Of a DNA stretch of 64,000 bases, positions 6,264 to 43,950 are shown piece after piece; position 1 is the first letter of the stretch, and every line of letters starts with the position of its first letter. Below the pieces are notes generated by a model, which was not told where the DNA came from, made no database searches, and saw nothing but the letters and a program-made list of their open reading frames with translations. The DNA comes from Acanthamoeba sp. SK_2022b (Eukaryota > Discosea > Longamoebia > Acanthamoebidae), in assembly GCA_027943245.1 (NCBI GenBank), contig JANDJZ010000135.1, positions 1 through 64,000 of the forward strand, in the 5' to 3' direction. Made by a program: the position numbers and the translations under genes.

Positions 6264-6402
6264 ACCTTCACCTTTTGCCTCCCACACAGAGAGCGTGGCA
6301 CACCGCCTTCTTGTGCGAGGTCTTCGCTGAAGCCTCTCCTCTTACCAGCAAATTCTCAACGGATAGGTTTTTGTGGCTAGCTTGGCGGGGGCAAGAAAGC
6401 AG

Positions 6403-7572
6403 ATGTACAAAACCATGGAGAGCGATGAGGCGTTGGCACGGCGGCTACAGCAGGAGGCCTACGAAGAGGCTGCACGATACGCGAACGATGCTGCCTACGC
6501 CCGCTCGGTGCAACTAACCCTGCAGCTGGGTCTGCCCATCGCCCCACAAAAGAAGAAGAAGACGCCTAACAAAAGCAAGAAGAACACAAACCAGAACAAG
6601 AGGCTTGTGGTCGCTCAAGCGGTGGGCGGCCAGGACCGCAGGCCCACACCCACACCCACACCGACCGCCAAAGCGAACAAGAACGGGCAGGAGGACGTCG
6701 TGATAGAAGAAGACGAGCGGATAGAGCACCTCGTGAAGTGCCTGCGCAAGCTCGCCCCGCGTAGGAGGCGTCGCGAGGACGAGTACACGCCGGACGAGCT
6801 GTTTAAGGCAGTGCGATGGGCGTTCGGGTCCGCCAACCTGGGCGACGCCTCTCCTCCCGTCCACGTTGCCAACTGCCAGCGGCTGGTCGAGGCCTGGCGC
6901 TCGACTCGGCTGGCCGAGGCCGCGGCCGACCCAGGGCAAGCGGCCAAGGCGGAGGCCGTGATGGTCGAGTTCAGGGCCTGGCTCGAGGTCCACGAGCGCG
7001 GCCAGCACTCTGAGTGGGAGCAGCTGCCGCTGGAGGTGATGGAGATGATCTTCGCGTGTTTCTCCCCCAACGAGCCCCAGCACCTTCTCGCTACGCGACT
7101 CGTTTGTCGCGCGTGGCACAGGGTGACGTCTGAAGTCAACCAGCCATTCTGGCATCGCCTCTTCGTGGCCCACAGGGACCAGTGGTGGCACCAGAAGGAG
7201 ACAGAGGCGAAGGAGGCCAGGCGACAGGAGTTCCACAGGCTCCTGCGCATCGCCCGCCAGGGCCTCGACGAGTCCACACAGGTAGCGGCAGCAAAAGATG
7301 AAGAAGATGCCGAAGAAGGGGGCGAAGAGGTGTGTTGGAAGAGGCAATACTACGAGTTGCTACACGGAGTGGACGCGAGCGCGTGGGAGGAGGTGCGACT
7401 CAAGGGCTTCCGAACTCGTCTCATCAACGGACCGAAGCCGGGCAAGACGCGGCCAAACTACGTACGGACGGCCAGGGCCGCCTCCTGTGAGCCGGCCGGC
7501 CACAATCGTAGGGTCCTGATCGACCGCGAGCGACGGCGGGAGCGAAGCACGCGCAGCCAGACCCCGTTCTGA
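6403..7572 (+). CDS. F-box protein, intronless
   Basis: Single-exon frame of 389 residues from the ATG at 6403; a second ATG at 6415 (MESDEALARRLQQE) is an equally good start. Residues ~5-35 are a charged amphipathic helix like those in ubiquitin-pathway proteins (DEALARRLQQEAYEEAARYAN). A Lys-rich linker follows, then an alpha-helical region. The F-box is at about residues 205-250: WEQLPLEVMEMIFACF, LLATRLVCRAWHRV and PFWHRLFVAH. F-box proteins bind Skp1 and recruit substrates to SCF ubiquitin ligases. No recognisable substrate-binding repeat follows; the C-terminus is basic and helical. It lies downstream of the tRNA-like RNA candidate, which would fall in or just before its 5' leader. Confidence 0.8.
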   Translation: MYKTMESDEALARRLQQEAYEEAARYANDAAYARSVQLTLQLGLPIAPQKKKKTPNKSKKNTNQNKRLVVAQAVGGQDRRPTPTPTPTAKANKNGQEDVVIEEDERIEHLVKCLRKLAPRRRRREDEYTPDELFKAVRWAFGSANLGDASPPVHVANCQRLVEAWRSTRLAEAAADPGQAAKAEAVMVEFRAWLEVHERGQHSEWEQLPLEVMEMIFACFSPNEPQHLLATRLVCRAWHRVTSEVNQPFWHRLFVAHRDQWWHQKETEAKEARRQEFHRLLRIARQGLDESTQVAAAKDEEDAEEGGEEVCWKRQYYELLHGVDASAWEEVRLKGFRTRLINGPKPGKTRPNYVRTARAASCEPAGHNRRVLIDRERRRERSTRSQTPF

Positions 7573-19457: not shown

Positions 19458-19894
19458 TGGTGTAATCATGCATCCCTTCCTGTTGTTGGATGCGTAGATC
19501 AGGCGGTGTCAGCGCAGACGGCTGTCCCATTGACAGAGCATGCCAGGTCCACCACCGGACACATCCACCTTTGGCAACTCTACACCATTTATGTTGGACT
19601 GGCGCAACAACCTGAGATCGGACAATGAGCATTGCCAATTCCAAGCCTGCCATCGCAATGGTAAAAAACACAAAGTAGCGTTCCTTTGCGACTGCATCAA
19701 ACGCTAGTGGGCGTTTGTCCACTATGAACCGACAGCCACCTGCGAACCTCCTAACTAAAGCTCTCAGCTTTTGCGCAAAAACTCCTTCCTACGGTCTGAG
19801 CTGCACGTGATTCCCTCCTTGGAGACTGTTGATTGAATTGGCCTTACGCCAGGCGTGTTGTACGCCACGGTCAAAAGCAGAGGTCCGAAATCAA
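19458..19894. other. Intergenic, nothing recognised
   Basis: Between tRNA-Lys and the 3' end of the inverted GTPase copy. Short chance ORFs only; no RNA gene or repeat recognised. Confidence 0.4.
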
Positions 19895-22823
<2,929 letters not shown>

Positions 22824-22949
22824 GTATTTCTAAAGGTGCCAGTCACAACCACACTGTGAACATAACTTCTTGATTCATCCCATCCTCCTTGCAATGCATC
22901 TCTCTGCCACGAGGTGTATTGTTTCAGTACAATGTGCATCATAGCTCCA

Positions 22950-23522: not shown

Positions 23523-24625
23523 GGTAAGGTACAATGATGCATTGACCAATAAATTTTGACAAATACTAAACTTAATCACCAAAACACAATTCTGAGGTCT
23601 TGTTGAAGTTCTTTGAGTTGGCAAGTTGTAGCCAGAGGACCGGAATCAGACTCAGCCCAGCATTACTGCAACTACAATCACAATACATCCTTACTCCAGA
23701 AGGTGTGTCCAATGGTTTGTTGTTCATGTTCCTTCCCCACATTTCACACTTAAAAGGGTAGAATTGGAATAAAATCAAAGAAGGCTGTATTTTCAAGAGA
23801 AACATTGCAGTCAGAGTCCTCAGACAGGGAGGTCTCAGGCTTGTTTTTGTTGAAGAGATCCTCCTCATATCTTGGTGCTTGTAGGAAGAAGTGGAAGAAG
23901 AGGAGGAGGATGAGGAAGATGAATGGCGCTTTTGGAACTTGCTTCCCCTAGCATCCTTCTGGAAGGAGTTGTCTCCCTGTTCTTGCTGCTGCACTTATCC
24001 TGAAAGTTGACATCATGGGTGCTCTGGCGGTGCTTCTTGTGCTTTTTGGGTAAACAATTGGAGCTTGAATGGGAAAGTTCAGAAGAAGGTGGGTGCAAAG
24101 AGTGTTCCTGGCATCACATATGTGTATGTGGTGCAAAGAAATTCATAGAAGATGCAATGGGCAGCTGCTTACTCTGGTTGGAGTGGAAGACGTTTGAAGT
24201 TGTATGGTTGAACCAAGGTGAGGTTGTGGAGGAGTGGTCTGTTGGCTAGAGGAAATTGCCTCCAAAGCACCAATCCATTTAGCAATGACAGTAGCATTGG
24301 AGTTCCATGAAGAGGACTGTAGTTGAGTACACTGCGCTTTTCAGGATCAGCAGTTAGCTGGTGAGATAGGTGAAAACTGAAAGTAAAACAAAGCAAAGCT
24401 GACAATATCACTTTGTACGCATATGCAATGACAACATACCATTATGTTGAACTCCTCCTTAAGTCTTGGAGCACATTTCGTAAAGAGCCCATAACCATTT
24501 GCAGATTCATTAGAAGCTGCCACTGGCTATGCTCATGTGTGAGCAGTGAGATCAAGGGGGATAGGGCCATCAGTGGCACATGTCCCAAGGAAATGGTAGG
24601 GCCCATCCAAGCTGAGGAACTGGAG
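23523..24625. other. Lower-GC repeat DNA, no gene recognised
   Basis: Contains a GAAGAGGAGGAGGATGAGG tract (23887-23935) that recurs at 61206-61258, so it belongs to a dispersed repeat. No intact ORF of recognisable family. Confidence 0.4.
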
Positions 24626-24910
24626 TGGTAGTCCTTGGTTTTCAGCTGCACATTTCCAACATCACCATGAGTAAAGCAGGGCTTGAGGTGCCCTTCACAC
24701 TTTGGATATAAGGGTCCAGCCAGGTCTTGAATGACCAACATTCAAGCAGGAAAAGGGGCTCTGGCTTATGAATTTCCTTGGAGTACCCAGTGTTGAGCCC
24801 TTGCACAAAGTCATCCACAGTAAACACATGAGGATTGTACTTCATGCTTGTTGTGGAGAACATCTGATCAATGTCCTCATGGGTGTGCCCCACTGGCAGA
24901 AAAGAATTGG
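24626..24910 (-). mobile_element. Dispersed repeat ORF with GHTHEDIDQMFS motif
   Basis: Minus-strand frame begins GHTHEDIDQMFSTTSMKYNPHVFT and goes on VDDFVQGLN ... FLLECWSFKTWLDPYI. The GHTxEDIDQxFS signature is typical of transposon-associated proteins (DUF7869-like, often near KDZ or CxC elements). A close copy of the same stretch is at 42960-43215 and a partial one at 23075-23150. The fragment is not a full gene. The family name is from memory and should be treated as tentative. Confidence 0.45.
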
Positions 24911-25276
24911 TGATATTATGGACTTGTTATGCCTAGCCAGTGGTTACTGGTGAATGGCGCGAATCACAAGCATACAACATTGACTGTCAGGGCACCTTGA
25001 ATAAACATTACAGTCTACCTGCTGCTTGTGCACAGAACACAATGGCTCTGCACTTTCTTCATCTCCTTCTTACCTCTTTACTGGAATGCTGCACTGTCCT
25101 GCATAGGAGGTCTCCATGACATTTTTATGCTTGCTTTACCATTGCGTACATGTACATGATGCTCATGCACCTTCTTTCCCACAATTATGATACAAATGTG
25201 CATATGAGGATGCAGCCCAAAATACAAATCATTGCAACCTGCATTAGCAAGCCAGGCAAACCAACTGCTTTTCTTA

Positions 25277-27525: not shown

Positions 27526-27699
27526 AAAGGGATCATGCATGATTTTTTATTTACAGACATGGTTCCCCAGCCTGCCAGGGTCTGTGGTGAGGGGGGGGAA
27601 GATGGGGGCCTTGGCAGGGTTGGATCCTGGCGCAAAGGGAATGCACCCAGGTACAGGGAGCAGGGCTTGGCTTGGTGGGCGGCCAGGAGGTGGGTTTTT

Positions 27700-30600
27700 A
27701 TGAGACTGCACTTCTTGAGCATCCCTTGCGTTGGGCCGCAGATGCTGCAGATTCTGCAAAATGCTTCCCTTGCTTGAAATGGGAGATTAGACCTGGCGCT
27801 TGCACGTTGTTGACAGGGACCCACTGGTTATGTTGATCAGTGTGCCCCTTGAAATGGACCAGGTACTCCAACCCGCACAAGGTTGTCCAGTTGTTGAGGA
27901 TCTCATCAATTTCAGCCTGCTCTCCCTTGGCTGGGATCTCCTGCTGGGCTTGCTTGACAAGGTCTGGCGTAGTCCCTTCGTCAGCAGAATTTGGCCTGAC
28001 CCACTGCTTGAGGCATGTGACATGAGCAAATTGGTGATCTCAGGGGTTATGGATGTTGACCAATCCATAGTTCAAGCCACCTTGGATCTCAATGACCTGG
28101 TAGGGGCCCCACCATGGTTTCATGAACTTCTTGCTGTGTTGACCACGCACTGTAGGGACATGCAGCCAGACCTTGGTTCCCAACTTGAATGGTTGGTCAG
28201 TCTTGTCCCTATTGTAGCTCCAGCAGTTGCACTCCTGGGCCTCATGTTGGTGTTCTTTGGCTGCCTGAAAGGCCAACATCAGCCGTTCCACCAGGCTGCT
28301 CTGGTAGTCTCCTGCGCCCTCTTCGGCCCTTGCCTGAGGCAGGCCAAGGGACACATCAATGGGCAGGTAATGGTCGTGCCCAAACATTAAGTAGAAAGGC
28401 GTCTCCAAGGTCGCCTTGTGGATGGAGCACCAGTAGGCCACCAGCACATAGGGGATGTAGGTGTCCCAATCACGCTGATGATCAGCTACATACATGCTAA
28501 GCATGTTTTGTAGTGTTGAGTTGAACTGCTCTGTCAGTCCATCTGTCTGGGGGTGGTAGGCAGTCATTTGGAGCCGGTGCACTCTCAAGTCATTGTTGAT
28601 GCTTGCAAGCACCTCATTCAGGAACTCCCATCCCTGGTCTGAGAGTAGACACTCCAGGGCCCCATGGACACAGACCAGCCCTTCAATGAATGCCTGTGTG
28701 ACCATATCAGCCTTCTTGTCTGGCCACTGCAATGGGCCACTTGGTCAGGTAATCAACCATCACAAGGATCCACTTGTTGCCAGCATCAGACTCCCAAAAT
28801 GGCCCCATCAGGTCAATACCAACTCGCTTGAATGATTGGCTTGCTGCTGGGATAGGCTGCAGGAGACCATTCTTGCCTTGACGTGGTGCTTTCCTTCGCT
28901 GGCATTGCTTGCACGATGCCACCCACAATGCAATCTCCCTTGACTTGTGTGGCCACCAATACTTGTGCTTGATAGTGGAGATGGTGCGGTTTCGCCCTAG
29001 GTGGCCTGCCAGTACGTCATCATGGTGAGCAGCCATGATGGTCTCAGTGTATGAGGCTGGGATTGCCAGCTGGGCGAGGGTCTGGGTGTCACTTGAACCC
29101 TGCTGAGGCCAAGCATGGTGGTACAGCAGTCCATCAAATAACTCACATTGCTCTGCCTCTAGGCGCACTCGTCTTGCCATACTGTCCTCTGGGGGTAGTA
29201 TGTCCTCCACAAGGAACTGAAGGATGGCCCCCATAAATGGGTCTGCTTGCTGCTCTCTGCCAAGGTCTTCCATGAGATCATACCAATGGCCACTCTGGCA
29301 TTGGTGATGCTTCTGGGCTGGCTGCCTGTGCCACCACCCCCATTGCTGCTGCCCGCTGCTCTGCCACCCTTGCAACATCACCATAGGGGTCTGTAGCCAC
29401 CTGGTGCACAAACTCTCAACCTCTAATTGCTGCAGCCCTCTTGGCTTGGGGCTCACCCACAACACTGACAATATCTGCCTCGACCACTGGCAGGTGGGTC
29501 ATCGCATCAGCATTAGCATGTTTCATACCTGGCCGATAGATGATGTCAAACTCATAGGGCTGTAGCTTCATTGCCCAGCGCGCCAGCCAACCCTGCTGCT
29601 CCTTCACCTCCATGAGCCACTTGAGTGCTGTGTGGTCAGTAATGACATGGAACTTGCTCCCATGTAGGTACTGATGGAAAAATTCAATCCAGTAAACAAT
29701 GCTCAGACATTCCCACTTGGTGACACTGTAGTTCTGACTTGGACAACTGCTGGCTGGCATAGGCCACCACACACTTGTCGCCCTCCTCAGTCCTCTGCAA
29801 CAGCACCGCCCCAATGGCCAAACAAGATGCATCTGTGTGGAGGTAGAACAGTGCGTCAAAGTTGGGGAACACCAGGACTGGGGCCATGGTCAACACTTCC
29901 TTCAGGTGCGTGAATGCCTTTTCACACTCCTCTGACCAGGCCACCCCATGGAACGGCTCCACCTGAAGGAGTCGGTCCAGTGGCTCCACCACCTCCACAA
30001 ATGCTGGCACAAATGGTAGTAGTTGCACAGCCCCAGGAACGTGTGTACCTCAGGTTGGTAGGCCAGCCCATTTCCTGCACAGCATGAACCTTCTCTGGAT
30101 CTGCAGCAATGCCGTCCTTCCACACCAGGTGCCCAAGGGAGGGAAGCTCTGTCCAGCAGAAGTTGCACTTTGATGGCTTCACAAACATAATGGTACAACC
30201 ATGAACTGGAAGGTCCCATGCCAAGTCACAAAGGCAGTCTTCTCAATGTTGTCCTCATGCACAGGTATGTGTGCATATGCGTGGCCATAGCACCCTTGGG
30301 GCCACCCTAAGAGCTGGCGCCATCGGATTTGATGTTGACTGGCATGAGGGATGTGCTCCACACTGCCAGGTACATGGTCACCACCAAGCATCCACAGAAT
30401 CAAGAGGTGGAAATGGGACAAGATCTTTCCTCTGTGGACCAGCTCATGGCTTGGCAAGTGTGTTCTCCCCTGCTCTTGTGTTCTTCAACACACCAAGGGC
30501 TGTTGAAGCGCAGGCGACAGACTTGGTCTAACTTGCTGGTCATCTGCTCAGGAACATCACAGTCCCAAGGGATGCACACATGCTTTGCTGGGCTGAGTAT

Positions 30601-31502: not shown

Positions 31503-34500
31503 ATGGCAGAACACAACCCCGAAGAGCTGCTACCCCCTGAGGTGCGTTCCACAATCCATCGGTCTCCTTAGACTCTGCTCTTTTTTTTTTTTTTTTTGGC
31601 TCACTTCGCTGGGTGCAACAACAGGCATGGGTCCACGTGCTCTCGTTTGTGGACGCCGAGAGCGTGGCCAGAAGCGTGTGCCTCGTTTCGCGGGCCTTCC
31701 ATGCATTGGCCGCCGAGCCCCAGCTCTGGCGCCAACTCGTTCTGCGCCATTTTCCTGCCGCCCTCGCCCACACCAACCTGTATGAGGCTGACGAGGCCGA
31801 CGGATGGCGCAAGACCTTCTTCGCCCGCCGCTGGCTCGACCGCTCCGTACGACCCACTCCATTCCCTTGGCCAATGAAAACTCTCACTTGACAATTTAAT
31901 TGAGGGATATAGAAGCGGCCCCGGTTCTGTGTCTTGGGCCACGTTGACAGTGGCAAATCAACCCTCCTTGGTACATCAACGTTCTATCAAGGCTCGGCCT
32001 TGCTCTCTCTCTCTCTCTCTCTCTGTTTGTGTGTCTCCGTGATGGCGTTAGTGATGTGTGGGCGGCCTTTGGGAGGTCTGCAGGACGCCTCTTGGAGGGA
32101 TTGGGAAAGATCTCTACGGAGGAGATAAACCGTTTGCGAAAGCTGACTGCCATCTTTGGCAAGATGTCTTTCACGCACGCGTGGGCGCTAGACCGCTGCC
32201 AGACCGAACGAGAGCGTGGCATCTGTACGCAGAGCACACCCACACGCACGCACACCACACCACACCACACCACACCACACCACACCACACCACACCACAC
32301 CACACCACACCACACCACACCACATTCCTGCTGCTCGATCTTTCTCTCTGCCTCAACTATTTGCCGTCTCTGTTTTACACATTTTCCACATCGCGCACCA
32401 GCAATCCACGGCCGCACAATGGAGTGTACGCTGGCGAATGGTCGCGAGATCGAAGTCGTGGACCTGCCCGGTCACCGCGATTACCTCAAGAATCTCATCA
32501 TCGTACGTACAGCCGTGCCAACGGCCAGCCCAGCCCAGCCCAGCCCAGCCCAAGCTTCGTCGGGCGAGGGGGTGTATGATCATGAGCTCACAACAATGCG
32601 CGAAACGAAACGTGCAAGGGTGCGGCGATGGCCGATGTGGCCATACTCGTGGTGGCCGCCAGCCTTGGCGAGTTCGAAGCTGGCATTGCGGACGGGTCCG
32701 GTTACCGCTCCGTTGGTGGTACAGCTTCTTGGCCTTCAGTTCTTATGGGGGCGAGGAGCTCACTGCTCACTCTCGCCTTCTCTCTGTCTTATGTGTGCAT
32801 ATGGCTCTGTGTGTGTTGTGTGCGGGTGTGTACATGTGTTGATGGATGGATGGGGTGACTTAGGTACGCGTGAACATCTGAAACTGGCGAAGCAACTGAA
32901 TATCTCCAAGATCATCGTGGCGATCAACAAGATGGACGACTACAGTGTCAGAGGATCAGAGCACCGCTTCATCGTACTTCCTCACCCCTCCCTCACTCCA
33001 TCTGCAAAATTCCAAACTCGCCTCGTGTTCAGGCCGTCTCACCAAACATCGCTGATTGGGGGGGTTGAGGCAAACAGGAAATCAAGGACGAGGTGTTGAA
33101 GGTGGCCGCTCATGTGGGGTTCCAGCCCGAGGGTGCTCTACCACCCCACCTTCATCTTGTGTCTTGAGCTGTGCGTTTGTTGCGCGTGCGCGCATGCTCA
33201 TGTGTGGTTTGCGTCTATCGTGGCTGATGATGATGACGTCGCAACAATTGGCCTGATGCGCGCTCCGCCACCAACAGAGCTGGTAGTGGTCCCCATTGCG
33301 GGGTGGTCCGGCGAGAACGTTGTCTCGGCGCCCGTCCTGTTCAGCTGGTTCGTGAGCTCCTCCACAGCCTCGCCTCCCCCCATCCACGCTGTGTGTCGCT
33401 CTCTCCCTCCCTCTCCGTAGCTTGCACTTAACAAAGCCCATTTGACGGCCTCACCCCAGGTACAAGGGTCCCTCGCTGCCCGAAGTCATGGAGCAGATGG
33501 CCGACGCCATCTCGAGCGGCTCGCGTGCCAGCGAGGAGCTGGCCAAGCGACCGATATACGGGCCCGTTCGTCTGTCGGTGATGCGCCAAGTGCGGCGCGC
33601 CGAGAAAGCGCCCGGTGAGGCAGTAGTGGAGGCGCTGGTGCAGTCGGGGACCGTGCACGAGGGCCAAGCGCTCCAGGGCGTGCTTCCCGGCCCAATGGTG
33701 GATCGTCGCCCCAGGCGCAGTGCTGGTGCCGCCGATGGAGGTGGTGGTGGTGACAAGAGCGAAGCCGGCGCCTCAACACCCGAGGTGAGGGCCAGCTTTA
33801 CGGTGGTGCGCATCGAGCGTTTCGGCCAACCAGTGTACCTCCTGCTGCGCCACGTGTTGTGTTGCGGATTTCTTCAGAGATTGACACGCCCGACAATGGC
33901 GTACACGATGAAACATGTCTGCGTGTGTGGAATGGGTGAACACAGGCGGCAGGCAGCTGCAGGCGAGCTCGTCGGACTGCGACTGAAGCTGGAGTCGCTC
34001 CTGCCTGACCCCATTGCCCCGCCGTACTCCACACCCCCCCCCCAAAACCAGCACTCGCCTGTGTTGACCACCATTGTCTTGTGTGTGTATGCGTGCGTGC
34101 GTGCGCGTGCGCGTGTGTGGGCGGTGGCAGGAAGGAGAAGGTGATGATGAAGCGCATGGTGCGTGGTGTCGTGCTGGTATCAGATGAGACAACCGCCACA
34201 GGCGACAACGCACAAACCGCAAGCGTCAAGGCATTTACTGTCCGCCTCGTCCACAACACCAGCTTCACTCTGCGTCAGGGATTCACTCCATCCTGCATCA
34301 TCCATTCGGCGTCAGTTCCGTGTCGGTATGCGCGTTCTCACTCCCCCCCCCCCAATGCTAGGGTCTCAATCGTGCATCAGCATGGCACGGTCTGCCACAC
34401 GCACACACATATACGCACGCACTCACTCGCACACACAGGGTGGAAAAGGTGATCAAGTGCTGGGATGAAGAAGGAAACGAGGTCGAGGTGCATGACAAGG

Positions 34501-34750
34501 AAACCGAGATACGCGAGGGCATGAGCAGCCTCGTCGAGGTTAAGCCTCTTGTACGTAGCCAGCCCAGGGAACACGTGTTGTTGGGCCGAGCTCAAAAAAG
34601 GGACACTGACGGCAAGAGCACGGTGCTGTGGTGGTGCAGGGCTATGTGTTCGTGGAGCCATACACGCGCAACGTAGCACTGGGCACAGTGGTGGTGACCA
34701 ACGGTTACATGATGGCCACCGGTAGCATTGAATCGGTGTTGCGCGGTTGA
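31503..34750 (+). CDS. F-box/EF1A-like translational GTPase fusion, copy A (exon 4 damaged)
   Basis: Exons found: 31503-31541, 31625-31846, 31916-31970, exon 4 ending 32224, 32402-32502, 32619-32700, 32864-32973, 33078-33132, 33278-33347, 33460-33834, 33946-33993, 34131-34325, 34439-34550 and 34640-34750. Phases agree at every junction except the start of exon 4. Exons 1-2 encode an F-box (LLPPEAWVHVLSFVDAES, SVCLVSRAFHALAAEPQLW). Exon 3 carries the P-loop GHVDSGKST; then RERGI, DLPGHRDYLKN (G3), NKMD (G4), VPIAGWSGEN (G5 region), and beta-barrel domains 2 and 3 of the EF1A/eRF3/Hbs1 class, ending SIESVLRG. At exon 4 the acceptor and about 80 bp present in copy B are missing after a (CT)n run, so the frame cannot be joined with normal splice sites. 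It may therefore be inactive, or use an unusual junction. Cellular role unknown. Confidence 0.65.
32251..32324 (+). repeat. (CACAC)n pentanucleotide array in intron
   Basis: About 14 units of CACAC in the intron after exon 4 of copy A. The same intron of copy B carries a TG run instead. Confidence 0.95.
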
Positions 34751-36469: not shown

Positions 36470-37320
36470 CCTATCTTAGCCAATGAGTGATGGCACAAGC
36501 TGAAGGACGAGCACCACCAGTAGTCTTTCTTGATGAGACCTTTGCACATGCCAATCATGCACCAAACTTCTCCTGGTACCTGCAAGCAGAAGGGAATGCA
36601 GTTGGCACCACAAGGTAAAGGCCAACGCCTCATTCTACTTCACGCAGGATCAAAGGATGGATGGATACCAGGTATGCTCTTCATTGTATCTTCCCAATTC
36701 ATTCCATTCACTGATGGTTCACTTATAGGAGCTGAGCTGCAGTGGGTTGTGCGCAAGTCCAGCAAAACCTCTGATTATCATGATAATGTTGATCACAAGG
36801 TCTTCATCACATGGTTTGAAGAGAAGGTTTGCAAGGCTCTGTCACAACCCACAACCATCATCATGGATAATGCAGCATATCACAAGGTCAAACACTACAC
36901 CAATGAGGAGCAAGAGATCATGGGCAGAAGAACCTTCAGCAAGCTGACAAAGCCAATGCTTCAACGTTACCTCACATATCATGCGGTTGCTTGGTCAAGC
37001 ACAATGACCCAAGACGAGCTCTACAAGCAGGCACAGGAAGTGTATGACAACACTCCACCTGCCCTCTATGACATCACATGAAAGTATGGGCACTTGATTC
37101 CCTTCCTTCTGCCATATCACTCCAACCTGAATCCAATCAAGAATGTGTGGAGATGTGGCGCAAAATTGAGAGTGCTTCATTGTGGGGGAGGTGGACAAAT
37201 TGGTGAAGGAAGGGATTAATCATGTTACCCCTGAAATGTGGCGCAGGGCTATAGAAAGAGTGGAAAAGATGGAGGACAAGTTATTCATTGACAATGTAAT
37301 GGATGACATTATCACCGCAT
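36470..37320 (+). mobile_element. DDE transposase remnant (DDE_3/IS630-Tc1-like)
   Basis: Two frames joined by a frameshift near 36618 spell the catalytic core: VVFLDETFAHANHAPNFSW (first Asp), GKGQRLILLHAGSKDGWI, TIIMDNAAYHKVKHYT (second Asp), and after an in-frame stop LPYHSNLNPIKNVW. In this family the last motif is normally NPIExxW; here the catalytic Glu is Lys. With the frameshift, the stop and the lost acidic residue the element is inactive. Terminal inverted repeats were not found. Confidence 0.75.
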
Positions 37321-39481: not shown

Positions 39482-41341
39482 TCATTGGTGTCTTGGTGAG
39501 ACGGCTGGGGCAGAGAAAAAGCTTGATCGAAGGGCGGTGAAGCAGTGGGTGTCGGGCACCACGCCCAGCTGGGCCATCTCGGCAAAGTAGCGCTTAGCAT
39601 CGTCAGGCCGCCCTGCACTGCCCAGCGCGGCGATGATGGCGCTGAAGCAGTGGGCGCTGGGCACCACGCCCAGCTGGGCCATCTGGGCAAAGTAGCGCTC
39701 GGCATCGTCGACACGCCTGGCGGTGCCCAGTGCAGCGATGAGGGCGCTGAAGCAGTGGGTGTTGGGCACCACACCCAGCTGGGCCATCTGGGCAAAGTGG
39801 CGCTCGGCATCGTCGACACGCCTGGCGGTGCCCAGTGCAGCGATGAGGGCGCTGAAGCAGTGGGTGTTGGGCACCACACCCAGCTGGGCCATCTGGGCAA
39901 AGTAGCGCTCGGCATCGTCAGGCCGACCTGCACTGCCCAGCGCGGCGATGAGGGCGCTGAAGCAGTGGGTGTTGGGCACCACGCCCAGCTGGGCCATCTG
40001 GGCAAAGTAGCGCTCGGCATCGTCGACACGCCTGGCGGTGCCCAGTGCAGCGATGAGGGCGCTGAAGCAGTGGGTGTTGGGCACCACACCCAGCTGGGCC
40101 ATCTGGGCAAAGTAGCGCTCGGCATCGTCAGGCCGCCCTGCACTGCCCAGCGCGGCAATGATGGCGCTGAAGCAGTGGGCGCTGGGCACCACGCCCAGCT
40201 GGGCCATCTGGGCAAAGTAGCGCTCGGCATCGTCGACACGCCTGGCGGTGCCCAGTGCAGCGATGAGGGCGCTGAAGCAGTGGGTGTTGGGCACCACACC
40301 CAGCTGGGCCATCTGGGCAAAGTAGCGCTTAGCATCGTCAGGCCGCCCTGCACTGCCCAGCGCGGCGATGATGGCGCTGAAGCAGTGGGCGCTGGGCACC
40401 ACGCCCAGCTGGGCCATCTGGGCAAAGTAGCGCTCGGCATCGTCGATCCGACCTGTAGAACCCAGCGCAGCTATAACGGCGCTGAAGCAGTAGACATCGG
40501 GCGTGAGTCCTCTGCGCTCGATCTCAGCGAAGTAGTGGAGCGCTTTGTCCGGTTGGCGAGCCTTGCCCAGCACTGCGATCAGGGCACTAAACACGCCTGG
40601 TGCGTTGGGTGTCTGTGAGCCACCGCCACCGCCACCACCAGGACGTCAAGGTTGAGCTGGTGCTCAGAGCAGATGAAGGGATGCAGGAGGCGAAATCTTA
40701 CGTGGCCAGCAAGCATCAGCTCGACCAGCTCAACGGCCGTCTCCCACTGGCGCGTGCGACCCAACAGAGGCATCACGGCGCTCACGGCCCACGGGTGAAG
40801 TTGGTGTGTGCGCTTGAGCGTGGCCACCAGCGAGTCCACCTCGGCAATCGAGCCTGGTGAGCGTGCGCGTGCGCGTGCGCGTGCACGGTCATCTCGTGTG
40901 CCTAGAGCACGGCATGGGAGCAAATAAGCGCAGGAGGGGGGGCTGGGAAGCGGAACCGGACTGCTTGATGCGCTGGGCCATCTGCTGCACCTGGCGCACT
41001 GAAGGCTTTTCCTCGGCGCTTTTCGCTGCTGCCGTCGTGGTGGCGGCGTCTGGCCGGTTGTTTGCTTGCCGAGTGGGAGAGGACCTGTTTCGGTGTTTCG
41101 GTTGAGCTGCTGGTGGTGCCGATGGCGGGGGTCTAGCCGCGCGGTTGGCAGGCGGCGCGTGGGGAGCGGTCGTGGTCGCTGTGGCAAAAGGGGCGCTGAA
41201 GGGCTGGCGCACCCCTGTGTTGTTGGCCCGGTGGGAGCCGGTACCAATGAAAGGATTATTTTGACGTCGTGAGCGAAGAAGAAACGTATGCTGCAGCATC
41301 CCTATCTGCCGCAGCGATGCGGGCAGCACTATCCGCCTCAT
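39482..41341 (-). CDS. Pentatricopeptide-repeat protein, probably mitochondrial
   Basis: Three minus-strand exons, 40957-41341, 40702-40853 and 39482-40612, encode 555 residues. The start (41341) gives an Arg-rich, acid-free N-terminus (MRRIVLPASLRQIGMLQ), as expected for a mitochondrial presequence. After a Pro/Ala/Thr-rich linker come degenerate PPR motifs in exons 1-2 (WAVSAVMPLLGRTRQWETAVELVELMLAG). Exon 3 then has about ten 35-residue PPR units of the form CFSALIAALGxAxRxDDAER,YFAQMAQLGVVPxxH. Nine units are nearly identical in DNA (105 bp period). PPR proteins bind organellar RNA one base per repeat. The specificity residues here are Ser at position 5 in every unit, with Asn, Ser or Asp at position 35. 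The last unit is followed by a short non-PPR tail. Confidence 0.88.
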
Positions 41342-42959: not shown

Positions 42960-43950
42960 GTGTCTGGAGGAACTGGAGTGGTAGTCCTTGGTTTTCAGCT
43001 GCACCCTTCCATCATCACCATGAGTGAAGCAGAAGATATGTGGGCGTGAGGTGCCCTTCACACTTTGGATATAAGGGTCCAGCCAGGTCTTGAATGACCA
43101 ACATTCAAGCAGGAAAAGGGACTCTGGCTTATGAATATCGTTGGAGTACCAAGTGTTGAGCCCTTGCACAAAGTCATCCACAGTAAACACATGAGGATTG
43201 TACTTCATGCCCACCACGAATGGGGAGGATGGGGAAGACTTGGTTTTGCACCAGCCAGTGACAGTAAGCCAGCATTTTCTTGTTCTTGTTCACACAACTG
43301 CCATTATCAAGCTGCAGGTGTAAGGTTGTAGGCTGGATTCCTGCTGCTGGGCTTGCAAGGTGGCAAGTAAGGTGGTGGTGCAGCAAGGAGAGGGGCAAAG
43401 TCTGGGCCACAGCCAAACTGACCATGACGTAAGTAAAGACGGTCTGTTTAAGCCATTGACATTCTTTAAGCTCTTTCACACAGAGTTTCCCAAGTTCTGT
43501 GTCCTGGGCCTCTGCATCCTATGTGCATCAACAAACGATTGACTGATTGATTAATCAGCACATGACAACAGCACAGAGGGCCAAGCTGAAGAAGCAAAAG
43601 TTTGAGCATTTGCGCCTTTTTGAAAAGGAGCGCAAGATGTAACACCTTCATCAGCAGGAAGCAAGCACTGATCCCAGTGGTGTCTTCTCTGTGATTATGG
43701 ATGGTTCAAGTGATGTGATACTTCCCATGCTGGTGCCTCCCCCATCTTCCTGGAAGGACCTGCACCTCTTCAAGCTGGGCATTCATGGTTTCATCAACCA
43801 TGACCTCAAGACAATTGTTTCAGTAGCCCTGCTGTATCATTGCTGCTCTGCAATAGAGATTGTAGAGGTGATCCTTGGTTACAAATTTTTGGGTTCGTTA
43901 AAAAGTGACCTTGTTACTTTTTTAAGAAGCTTTGAGCAAGGGACCTAAAC
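42960..43950. mobile_element. GHTHEDIDQ-family repeat fragments, two orientations
   Basis: Minus strand 43479-42960 carries LHLQLDNGSCVNKNKKMLAYCHWLV and KYNPHVFTVDDFVQGLN, the latter nearly identical to 24626-24910. Plus strand 43550-43900 carries RAKLKKQKFEHLRLFEKERKM, a stop, then GVFSVIMDGSSDVILPMLVP and LGIHGFINHDLK. These look like N- and C-terminal parts of one transposon-linked protein placed head to head. A 60 bp piece (43445-43510, TTCTTTAAGCTCTTTCACACAGAG) recurs at 61710-61775. Confidence 0.45.

What the first reader, a model, noticed from the sequence alone, without database searches (positions are those of the whole stretch)
31503..34750. F-box fused to an EF1A/Hbs1-class GTPase
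An F-box exon pair is spliced in frame (phase 0) to an exon with GHVDSGKST, and the rest of a translational GTPase follows. F-box domains link to SCF ubiquitin ligases; translational GTPases of the Hbs1/eRF3 type act in ribosome rescue. A single protein joining them would suggest ubiquitylation directed by a ribosome-associated GTPase. The F-box tail and its intron are also in the second copy, so the fusion is older than the duplication.
Basis: partly seen in the sequence, partly recalled or inferred. Interest (0 to 1): 0.75.

Follow-up and report, generated by a model that had tools for sequence, protein, structure and literature searches.

The report
F-box fused to EF1A-like GTPase
An Acanthamoeba gene joins a ubiquitin-ligase adaptor domain (F-box) to a complete but drifted copy of a translation elongation factor; the fusion looks real, belongs to a small gene family found here only in Acanthamoeba, and its target is unknown.

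Summary
31503-34750 reads as one 14-exon, 585-residue protein: F-box (Pfam E 9.5e-10), linker, then an EF1A-like GTPase. The short intron before the P-loop exon holds three in-frame stops, and no in-frame ATG lies between the last of them and the P-loop, so the obvious start is in the F-box exons. The architecture recurs in three database proteins: two A. castellanii Neff gene models, and a 641-residue frame on contigs of at most 2,523 bp that crosses 12 of 13 intron positions without extra sequence, as a spliced transcript would. An intact, 97%-identical copy lies on a second contig, a divergent relative on a third. Window copy B is a pseudogene without its F-box. By similarity the GTPase is nearer eEF1A than Hbs1/eRF3; the tree does not resolve this, and nothing found ties it to ribosome rescue. 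Two relatives have altered GTPase motifs yet keep the F-box. Best reading: a fast-changing SCF substrate receptor whose recognition module was made from eEF1A. F-box matches are plentiful here, so the partner, not the principle, is new. No paper describing it appeared in my searches.

The parts
31503..31541 (+). exon 1, MAEHNPEELLPPE (start of F-box), phase-0 donor
   Evidence: same intron position in C, D and in the C531 gene
31625..31846 (+). exon 2, rest of F-box and conserved linker (NLYEADEADGWRKTFFARRWLDRS)
   Evidence: linker conserved in P0001 and P0003
31847..31912 (+). 66-nt intron between F-box exons and GTPase; three in-frame stops, the last being TAG 31910-31912
   Evidence: same position in C, D and B
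31913..31970 (+). exon 3, P-loop GHVDSGKST
32084..32224 (+). exon 4, eEF1A Ser53-like region and switch I (ERERGIS, split with exon 5)
32402..32502 (+). exon 5, switch II DLPGHRD
32619..32718 (+). exon 6, GEFEAG motif of EF1A
32864..32973 (+). exon 7, NKMD (G4)
33078..33132 (+). exon 8, G domain
33278..33347 (+). exon 9, end of G domain (G5 IAGW)
33460..33832 (+). exon 10, divergent domain 2 with a Gly-rich insert
33953..34023 (+). exon 11, domain 2
34131..34325 (+). exon 12, domain 3
34439..34550 (+). exon 13, domain 3
34640..34750 (+). exon 14, end of domain 3 and stop
19887..22824 (-). copy B: pseudogene of the same gene without the F-box proper; TGA in exon 4, lost splice donor after exon 7, deletion in exon 10

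Best explanation
One protein, an SCF-type F-box receptor. The N-terminal F-box would dock on Skp1/Cul1 (inferred); the C-terminal body is homologous to EF1A over its full length (shown by profile, and for relative P0003 by a fold model) but has lost the sequence signature of domain 2, so it is more likely a binding module than a working elongation factor (inferred). It would present partners that still recognise the EF1A surface (exchange factor, cytoskeleton or others, unknown) for ubiquitylation. In this copy the nucleotide motifs are nearly canonical, so GTP may gate binding; in relatives P0001 and C531 some are lost, so nucleotide cycling is probably not the core function of the family. 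The tree fits a single origin before A, P0001, P0003 and C531 split; the family changes fast in Acanthamoeba.
For: Single frame through 14 exons, Pfam domains over cut-off. Fused relatives P0001-P0003, 3 of 3 over the F-box-like cut-off. P0001: a 641-residue frame on contigs of at most 2,523 bp, without extra sequence at 12 of the 13 intron positions of the window gene, with about 48 extra residues only around intron 11 that read like a retained intron. Linker and junction (GWRKTF.A...SKR.RFC) conserved at about 50% overall identity. Copy C intact, 9 synonymous and 12 non-synonymous differences in 585 codons, dN/dS 0.44. C531: separate gene, F-box-like 31.2 bits over cut-off 24.3, GTP_EFTU 6.9e-17, same phase-0 intron after LPPE. 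One clade: 100/100 for three rows, 96/85 with C531. hhalign to EF1A over columns 92-581, probability 100; P0003 model closest to a/eEF1A, TMt 0.78 for the top hit. Motif loss in P0001 (DxPGH to GVPGY, NKMD to NGMD) and C531 (NKCE) with F-box kept.
Against: No binding data. No RNA evidence for the window gene itself. The P0003 model has mean pLDDT 63.2, its F-box part is poor, and its alignment was mostly EF1A rows (22 of 24), which leans it towards EF1A. A/C differences are too few to prove purifying selection: dN/dS by segment 0.31, 0.47, 0.12 and 0.99. Two of the four copies in this genome are broken, so the locus may be partly dispensable. The C531 model is incomplete (no switch I/II). Skp1 and Cul1 were not searched for.
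Confidence: 0.6

Rival explanations
1. Ribosome-directed ubiquitylation: the GTPase still enters the factor site of stalled ribosomes and the F-box brings SCF to ribosomal proteins or nascent chains.
For: EF1A/Hbs1/eRF3-type fold; nearly complete G motifs in the window copy. A parallel: F-box on the eRF1-superfamily protein VLRF-1 in Naegleria and some ciliates (PMC6514570, passage seen).
Against: Not placed with Hbs1/eRF3 in the best tree, though not rejected (p-AU 0.49); domain 2 without D2 signature; P0001 and the incomplete C531 model lack canonical motifs.
Confidence: 0.15
2. Bait or decoy: the EF1A-like body attracts factors that attack or hijack eEF1A during infection, and the F-box has them ubiquitylated.
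For: No close counterpart of P0001 or P0003 was found in this genome (best F-box matches are copies A, C, D at 58-62%), whereas its profilin is 119 of 125 residues identical to PDB 1f2k, which I recall as Acanthamoeba profilin II: fast turnover. The residue aligned to eEF1A Ser53, the Legionella glucosyltransferase site (PMC3245282, start of abstract in a listing), is Ser in A and P0001.
Against: The Ser may simply be inherited from EF1A; it is Thr in P0003 and Tyr in D. Missing orthologues could also be assembly gaps. No functional data.
Confidence: 0.08
3. eEF1A-complex regulator: the body competes with or joins eEF1A complexes (exchange factor, actin), so that SCF adjusts eEF1A or eEF1B levels.
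For: EF1A homology over the full body.
Against: Interface residues not analysed; strong divergence from EF1A (35-36% identity to two EF1As).
Confidence: 0.12
4. Decaying gene without a present role.
For: Copies B and D are broken.
Against: A and C are intact over 14 exons with their splice sites; the fused architecture persists in Neff.
Confidence: 0.05

Closest known systems
A. castellanii Neff 'elongation factor Tu GTP binding domain containing protein' (P0002, P0003) and P0001
   Same: F-box at the N-terminus, same linker, EF1A-like body
   Different: About 50% identity to the window protein; P0001 and P0002 have PGY and NGMD instead of PGH and NKMD; the database name mentions only the GTPase, not the fusion
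eEF1A
   Same: G motifs, GEFEAG element, three-domain homology
   Different: Extra F-box; divergent domain 2 with a Gly-rich insert, no PF03144 hit; Thr to Ser in switch I, Ser to Ala in G5
Hbs1 and eRF3
   Same: Same GTPase superfamily; N-terminal extension (recalled)
   Different: Weaker matches than EF1A; the tree gives no support for grouping and does not reject it; the extension here is an F-box
F-box plus VLRF-1 (Vms1/ANKZF1 class, class name recalled) in Naegleria and some ciliates (PMC6514570, passage seen)
   Same: F-box attached to a relative of a translation-termination factor
   Different: Partner is of the eRF1 superfamily, not a GTPase; other lineages

Membership tests
F-box proteins (SCF substrate receptors) | F-box domain over the curated cut-off | tested here: met
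   PF12937 38.5 bits against 24.3; also P0001, P0002, P0003 and C531
F-box proteins (SCF substrate receptors) | a separate C-terminal domain that could bind substrates | tested here: met
   EF1A-like body, residues 86-585; that it binds substrates is inferred
F-box proteins (SCF substrate receptors) | Skp1 binding and ligase activity | not testable with these tools
   needs biochemistry
eEF1A | G1-G5 motifs with catalytic His | tested here: met
   GHVDSGKST, ERERGIS, DLPGHRD, NKMD, IAGW; Thr to Ser and Ser to Ala substitutions; P0001 would fail, and the incomplete C531 model lacks some of them
eEF1A | three-domain architecture | tested here: met
   hhalign 92-581 (domain 2 aligned poorly); P0003 fold
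eEF1A | domain 2 (PF03144) signature | tested here: not met
   no hit listed at E up to 1
eEF1A | aminoacyl-tRNA delivery | not testable with these tools
   needs biochemistry
Hbs1/eRF3 | groups with Hbs1/eRF3 in a G-domain tree | tested here: inconclusive
   best tree puts it with eEF1A at 30/95; holding it with Hbs1/eRF3 costs 0.23 lnL, p-AU 0.49
Hbs1/eRF3 | binds Pelota or eRF1 | not testable with these tools
   needs biochemistry

The most novel reading that the evidence does not exclude
A baited ubiquitin ligase: the amoeba has turned a copy of eEF1A, a target of intracellular bacteria, into the recognition arm of an SCF ligase, so that whatever binds or attacks eEF1A is itself marked for destruction. 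The family diversifies between Acanthamoeba species because its opponents do.
Probability: 0.08. Interest if true: 0.88.

Novelty: new variant of a known kind. Interest (0 to 1): 0.47.

Why it matters
It points to a core translation GTPase being reused as part of a ubiquitin-ligase receptor, with relatives that keep the fold and the F-box while losing canonical GTPase motifs. That allows a clean test of whether a translation-factor surface can serve as a degradation bait or sensor, in an amoeba known as host of bacteria and giant viruses that manipulate translation and ubiquitin.

Tried and rejected
Separate-genes reading: disfavoured by the in-frame stops before exon 3 and the missing ATG before the P-loop and by P0001; an unseen alternative first exon is not excluded. 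Hbs1/eRF3 assignment: looked for with own-genome and PDB rows, unresolved. The trees joined the F-box clade to CysN rows; in the second of them the program flagged this as long branches meeting. For one search (24 rows) I dropped the two CysN rows, C724, C531 and the Bonamia row. The program also flagged P0001 for odd composition. Viral origin: one scan of viral contigs with the family alignment, 13 pattern matches, 0 relatives. Wider distribution: a search with residues 1-94 returned 1 protein, P0003, of 97 candidates and missed P0001 and P0002, so that mode is not sensitive; the alignment search gave 3,022 hits among 7,998 candidates scored, of which 120 are listed, and among those 120 only P0001-P0003 carry an F-box in the Pfam column. 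So 'only in Acanthamoeba' means only as far as these capped searches reach. C357:56557 looked like F-box plus GTPase; one search shows a match over residues 8-90 only, no GTPase. Papers: searches gave listings (none); passages were seen only in PMC6514570 and PMC6582330 (whose figure legend lists A. castellanii eEF1A1, eEF1A2, eRF3 and Hbs1; 'F-box' occurs 0 times). The library holds open-licence papers only.

Full report
Where it lies. The window is part of contig C216 of a 44.9-Mb, 1,129-contig genome. A profilin from that genome is 119 of 125 residues identical to PDB 1f2k, 'profilin II', which I recall as Acanthamoeba; the nearest named relatives of the finding are A. castellanii Neff proteins. 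I infer an Acanthamoeba other than Neff.

The gene. Fourteen exons joined at GT..AG sites, 31503-34750, give 585 residues and one terminal stop. Pfam finds F-box-like (9.5e-10), GTP_EFTU (4.5e-41) and eEF1A C-terminal domain (9.8e-8), each over its cut-off; PF00646 F-box is just over its cut-off (20.6 against 20.5); no domain-2 family is listed. The 66-nt intron before it contains TGA, TGA and TAG in the frame of exon 3; the model's Met residues are 1 and then 134, and the P-loop starts at 96. An AUG start between the F-box exons and the P-loop is therefore not possible; an unseen alternative first exon would be the only other way.

Copies. Window copy B (22824-19887, minus) lacks the F-box proper, has a TGA in exon 4, a lost donor after exon 7 and a deletion in exon 10. 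Contig C672 (34.4 kb) has the same head-to-head layout: C (plus strand, 96.8% to the A region over 4 kb), intact, and D (minus), which has the full F-box but a 4-nt gap in exon 7 and GHVASGKST. C672 may be the other haplotype or a duplicated segment; I cannot tell. A versus C: 9 synonymous and 12 non-synonymous differences in 585 codons (dN/dS 0.44; by segment 0.31 for residues 1-87, 0.47 for 88-313, 0.12 for 314-424 and 0.99 for 425-585), introns 21 of 1,477 aligned bases. C and D are identical in F-box exons 1-2 (0 of 261) although intron 1 between them differs at 11 of 64, suggesting conversion or strong constraint of the F-box.

Relatives. Of 3,039 proteins found with the full sequence (7,997 candidates scored, 120 listed), the best three carry an F-box: P0001 (641 aa), P0002 and P0003 (both Neff, on 517,572- and 164,306-bp contigs); the next hit drops from 446 to 245 bits, and the other 117 listed show no F-box. 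P0001 and P0002 are identical over their first 287 residues, so they are probably the same Neff gene. P0001 lies on contigs of at most 2,523 bp and has no extra sequence at 12 of the window gene's 13 intron positions; around intron 11 it has 68 residues where A has 20, including a run of V-C repeats as a GT-rich retained intron would give. I read this as a spliced transcript with one retained intron; the reads themselves were not seen. P0001 also has a linker 16 residues longer, away from any intron of A. The stretch spanning the junction is conserved (GWRKTF.A ... SKR.RFC) in A, P0001 and P0003.

A deeper member. C531 (locus L041) begins MEELPPE | VWIGVLSW, with the phase-0 intron at the same place as in A, and continues into an EF1A-like body with GHVDCGKSS and NKCE; its switch I/II stretch could not be modelled, so it may be degenerate or mis-assembled. 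The incomplete conceptual product scores 31.2 bits for F-box-like (cut-off 24.3), 18.4 for PF00646 (below its cut-off 20.5) and 6.9e-17 for GTP_EFTU.

What the GTPase is. PDB sequence matches rank eEF1A (3.7e-53) before HBS1 (7.7e-46) and eRF3 (4.0e-36). hhalign of the family to EF1A covers columns 92-581 with probability 100. A model of P0003 (mean pLDDT 63.2, F-box part poor, 22 of 24 alignment rows EF1A) matches archaeal and eukaryotic EF1A best (top hit TMt 0.78). In a 24-row G-domain tree the three F-box rows form one clade (100/100), Hbs1 and eRF3 another (97/97); whether the F-box clade joins eEF1A or Hbs1/eRF3 is open (p-AU 0.49). With C531 the F-box clade has 96/85, on long branches.

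Active or not. The window copy has GHVDSGKST, ERERGIS, DLPGHRD, NKMD and IAGW; P0003 has GKVDCGKST, DLPGHCD, NRMD; P0001 has GVPGYRY and NGMD. The family keeps the F-box while the nucleotide site changes in some members. This argues that the shared function is the F-box plus the EF1A-shaped surface, not GTP-driven translation.

Context. In this genome 150 F-box-like matches were scored, of 421 candidates, and all 150 are over the cut-off; a few contain stops and haplotype pairs may be counted twice, so this is not a gene count. One lies in the window at 7015-7164 (open frame 6367-7569). F-box fusions are therefore expected; this partner is unusual. P0001 and P0003 have no closer counterpart here than A, C and D (58-62% in the F-box part), while a profilin is 95% identical: the family seems to turn over fast, unless orthologues are missing from the assembly. 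In the held papers I found no description. The nearest printed parallel I saw is the F-box on VLRF-1 in Naegleria and some ciliates (PMC6514570).

Mechanism. Shown: one open frame with domains and junction conserved across relatives, full-length EF1A homology. Inferred: Skp1 docking, substrate recruitment by the EF1A-like body. Unknown: the substrate. The ribosome-rescue version is possible but has no specific support. The bait version is the boldest reading: the residue aligned with eEF1A Ser53 is kept in A and P0001, but it is Thr in P0003, Tyr in D, and may be mere inheritance.

Noticed in passing
window 27698-30242 (minus): Retroelement-like frames, one with an integrase zinc-binding domain (PF17921, 1.1e-19), between copies B and A. 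Description only.
   Followed up: partly
window 24642-24926 (minus) and 42967-43210: DUF7869 match (3.8e-17) overlapping a stretch (24614-24847) repeated at 92% identity 18 kb away: perhaps another mobile element family.
   Followed up: partly
window 36524-37081 (plus): DDE_3-like transposase fragment below the curated cut-off.
   Followed up: no
window 39482-40645 (minus): 387-residue open frame of very similar PPR repeats (PPR_2 7.5e-69); shifted self-matches up to 92-93% in DNA, so probably recently amplified.
   Followed up: no
window 6367-7569 (plus): A second F-box frame, F-box at residues 217-266 of 401 (9.4e-9).
   Followed up: no
L017 and L018, F-box exons: Copies C and D are identical in exons 1-2 (0 of 261) but differ at 11 of 64 in the intron between them: conversion or unusual constraint of the F-box.
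   Followed up: partly
L046 (G000:C724:26500-29500): EF1A-like frame with an altered P-loop (GHAEAGLST), 47% identical to an EF1A over its length: a possible non-GTPase EF1A relative.
   Followed up: no
L047, L048 (C310, C212): Genes that look like bacterial CysN (my reading; PDB 1zun is a related hit) on contigs of this assembly; C310 is 368 kb, perhaps a bacterial companion or contaminant.
   Followed up: no
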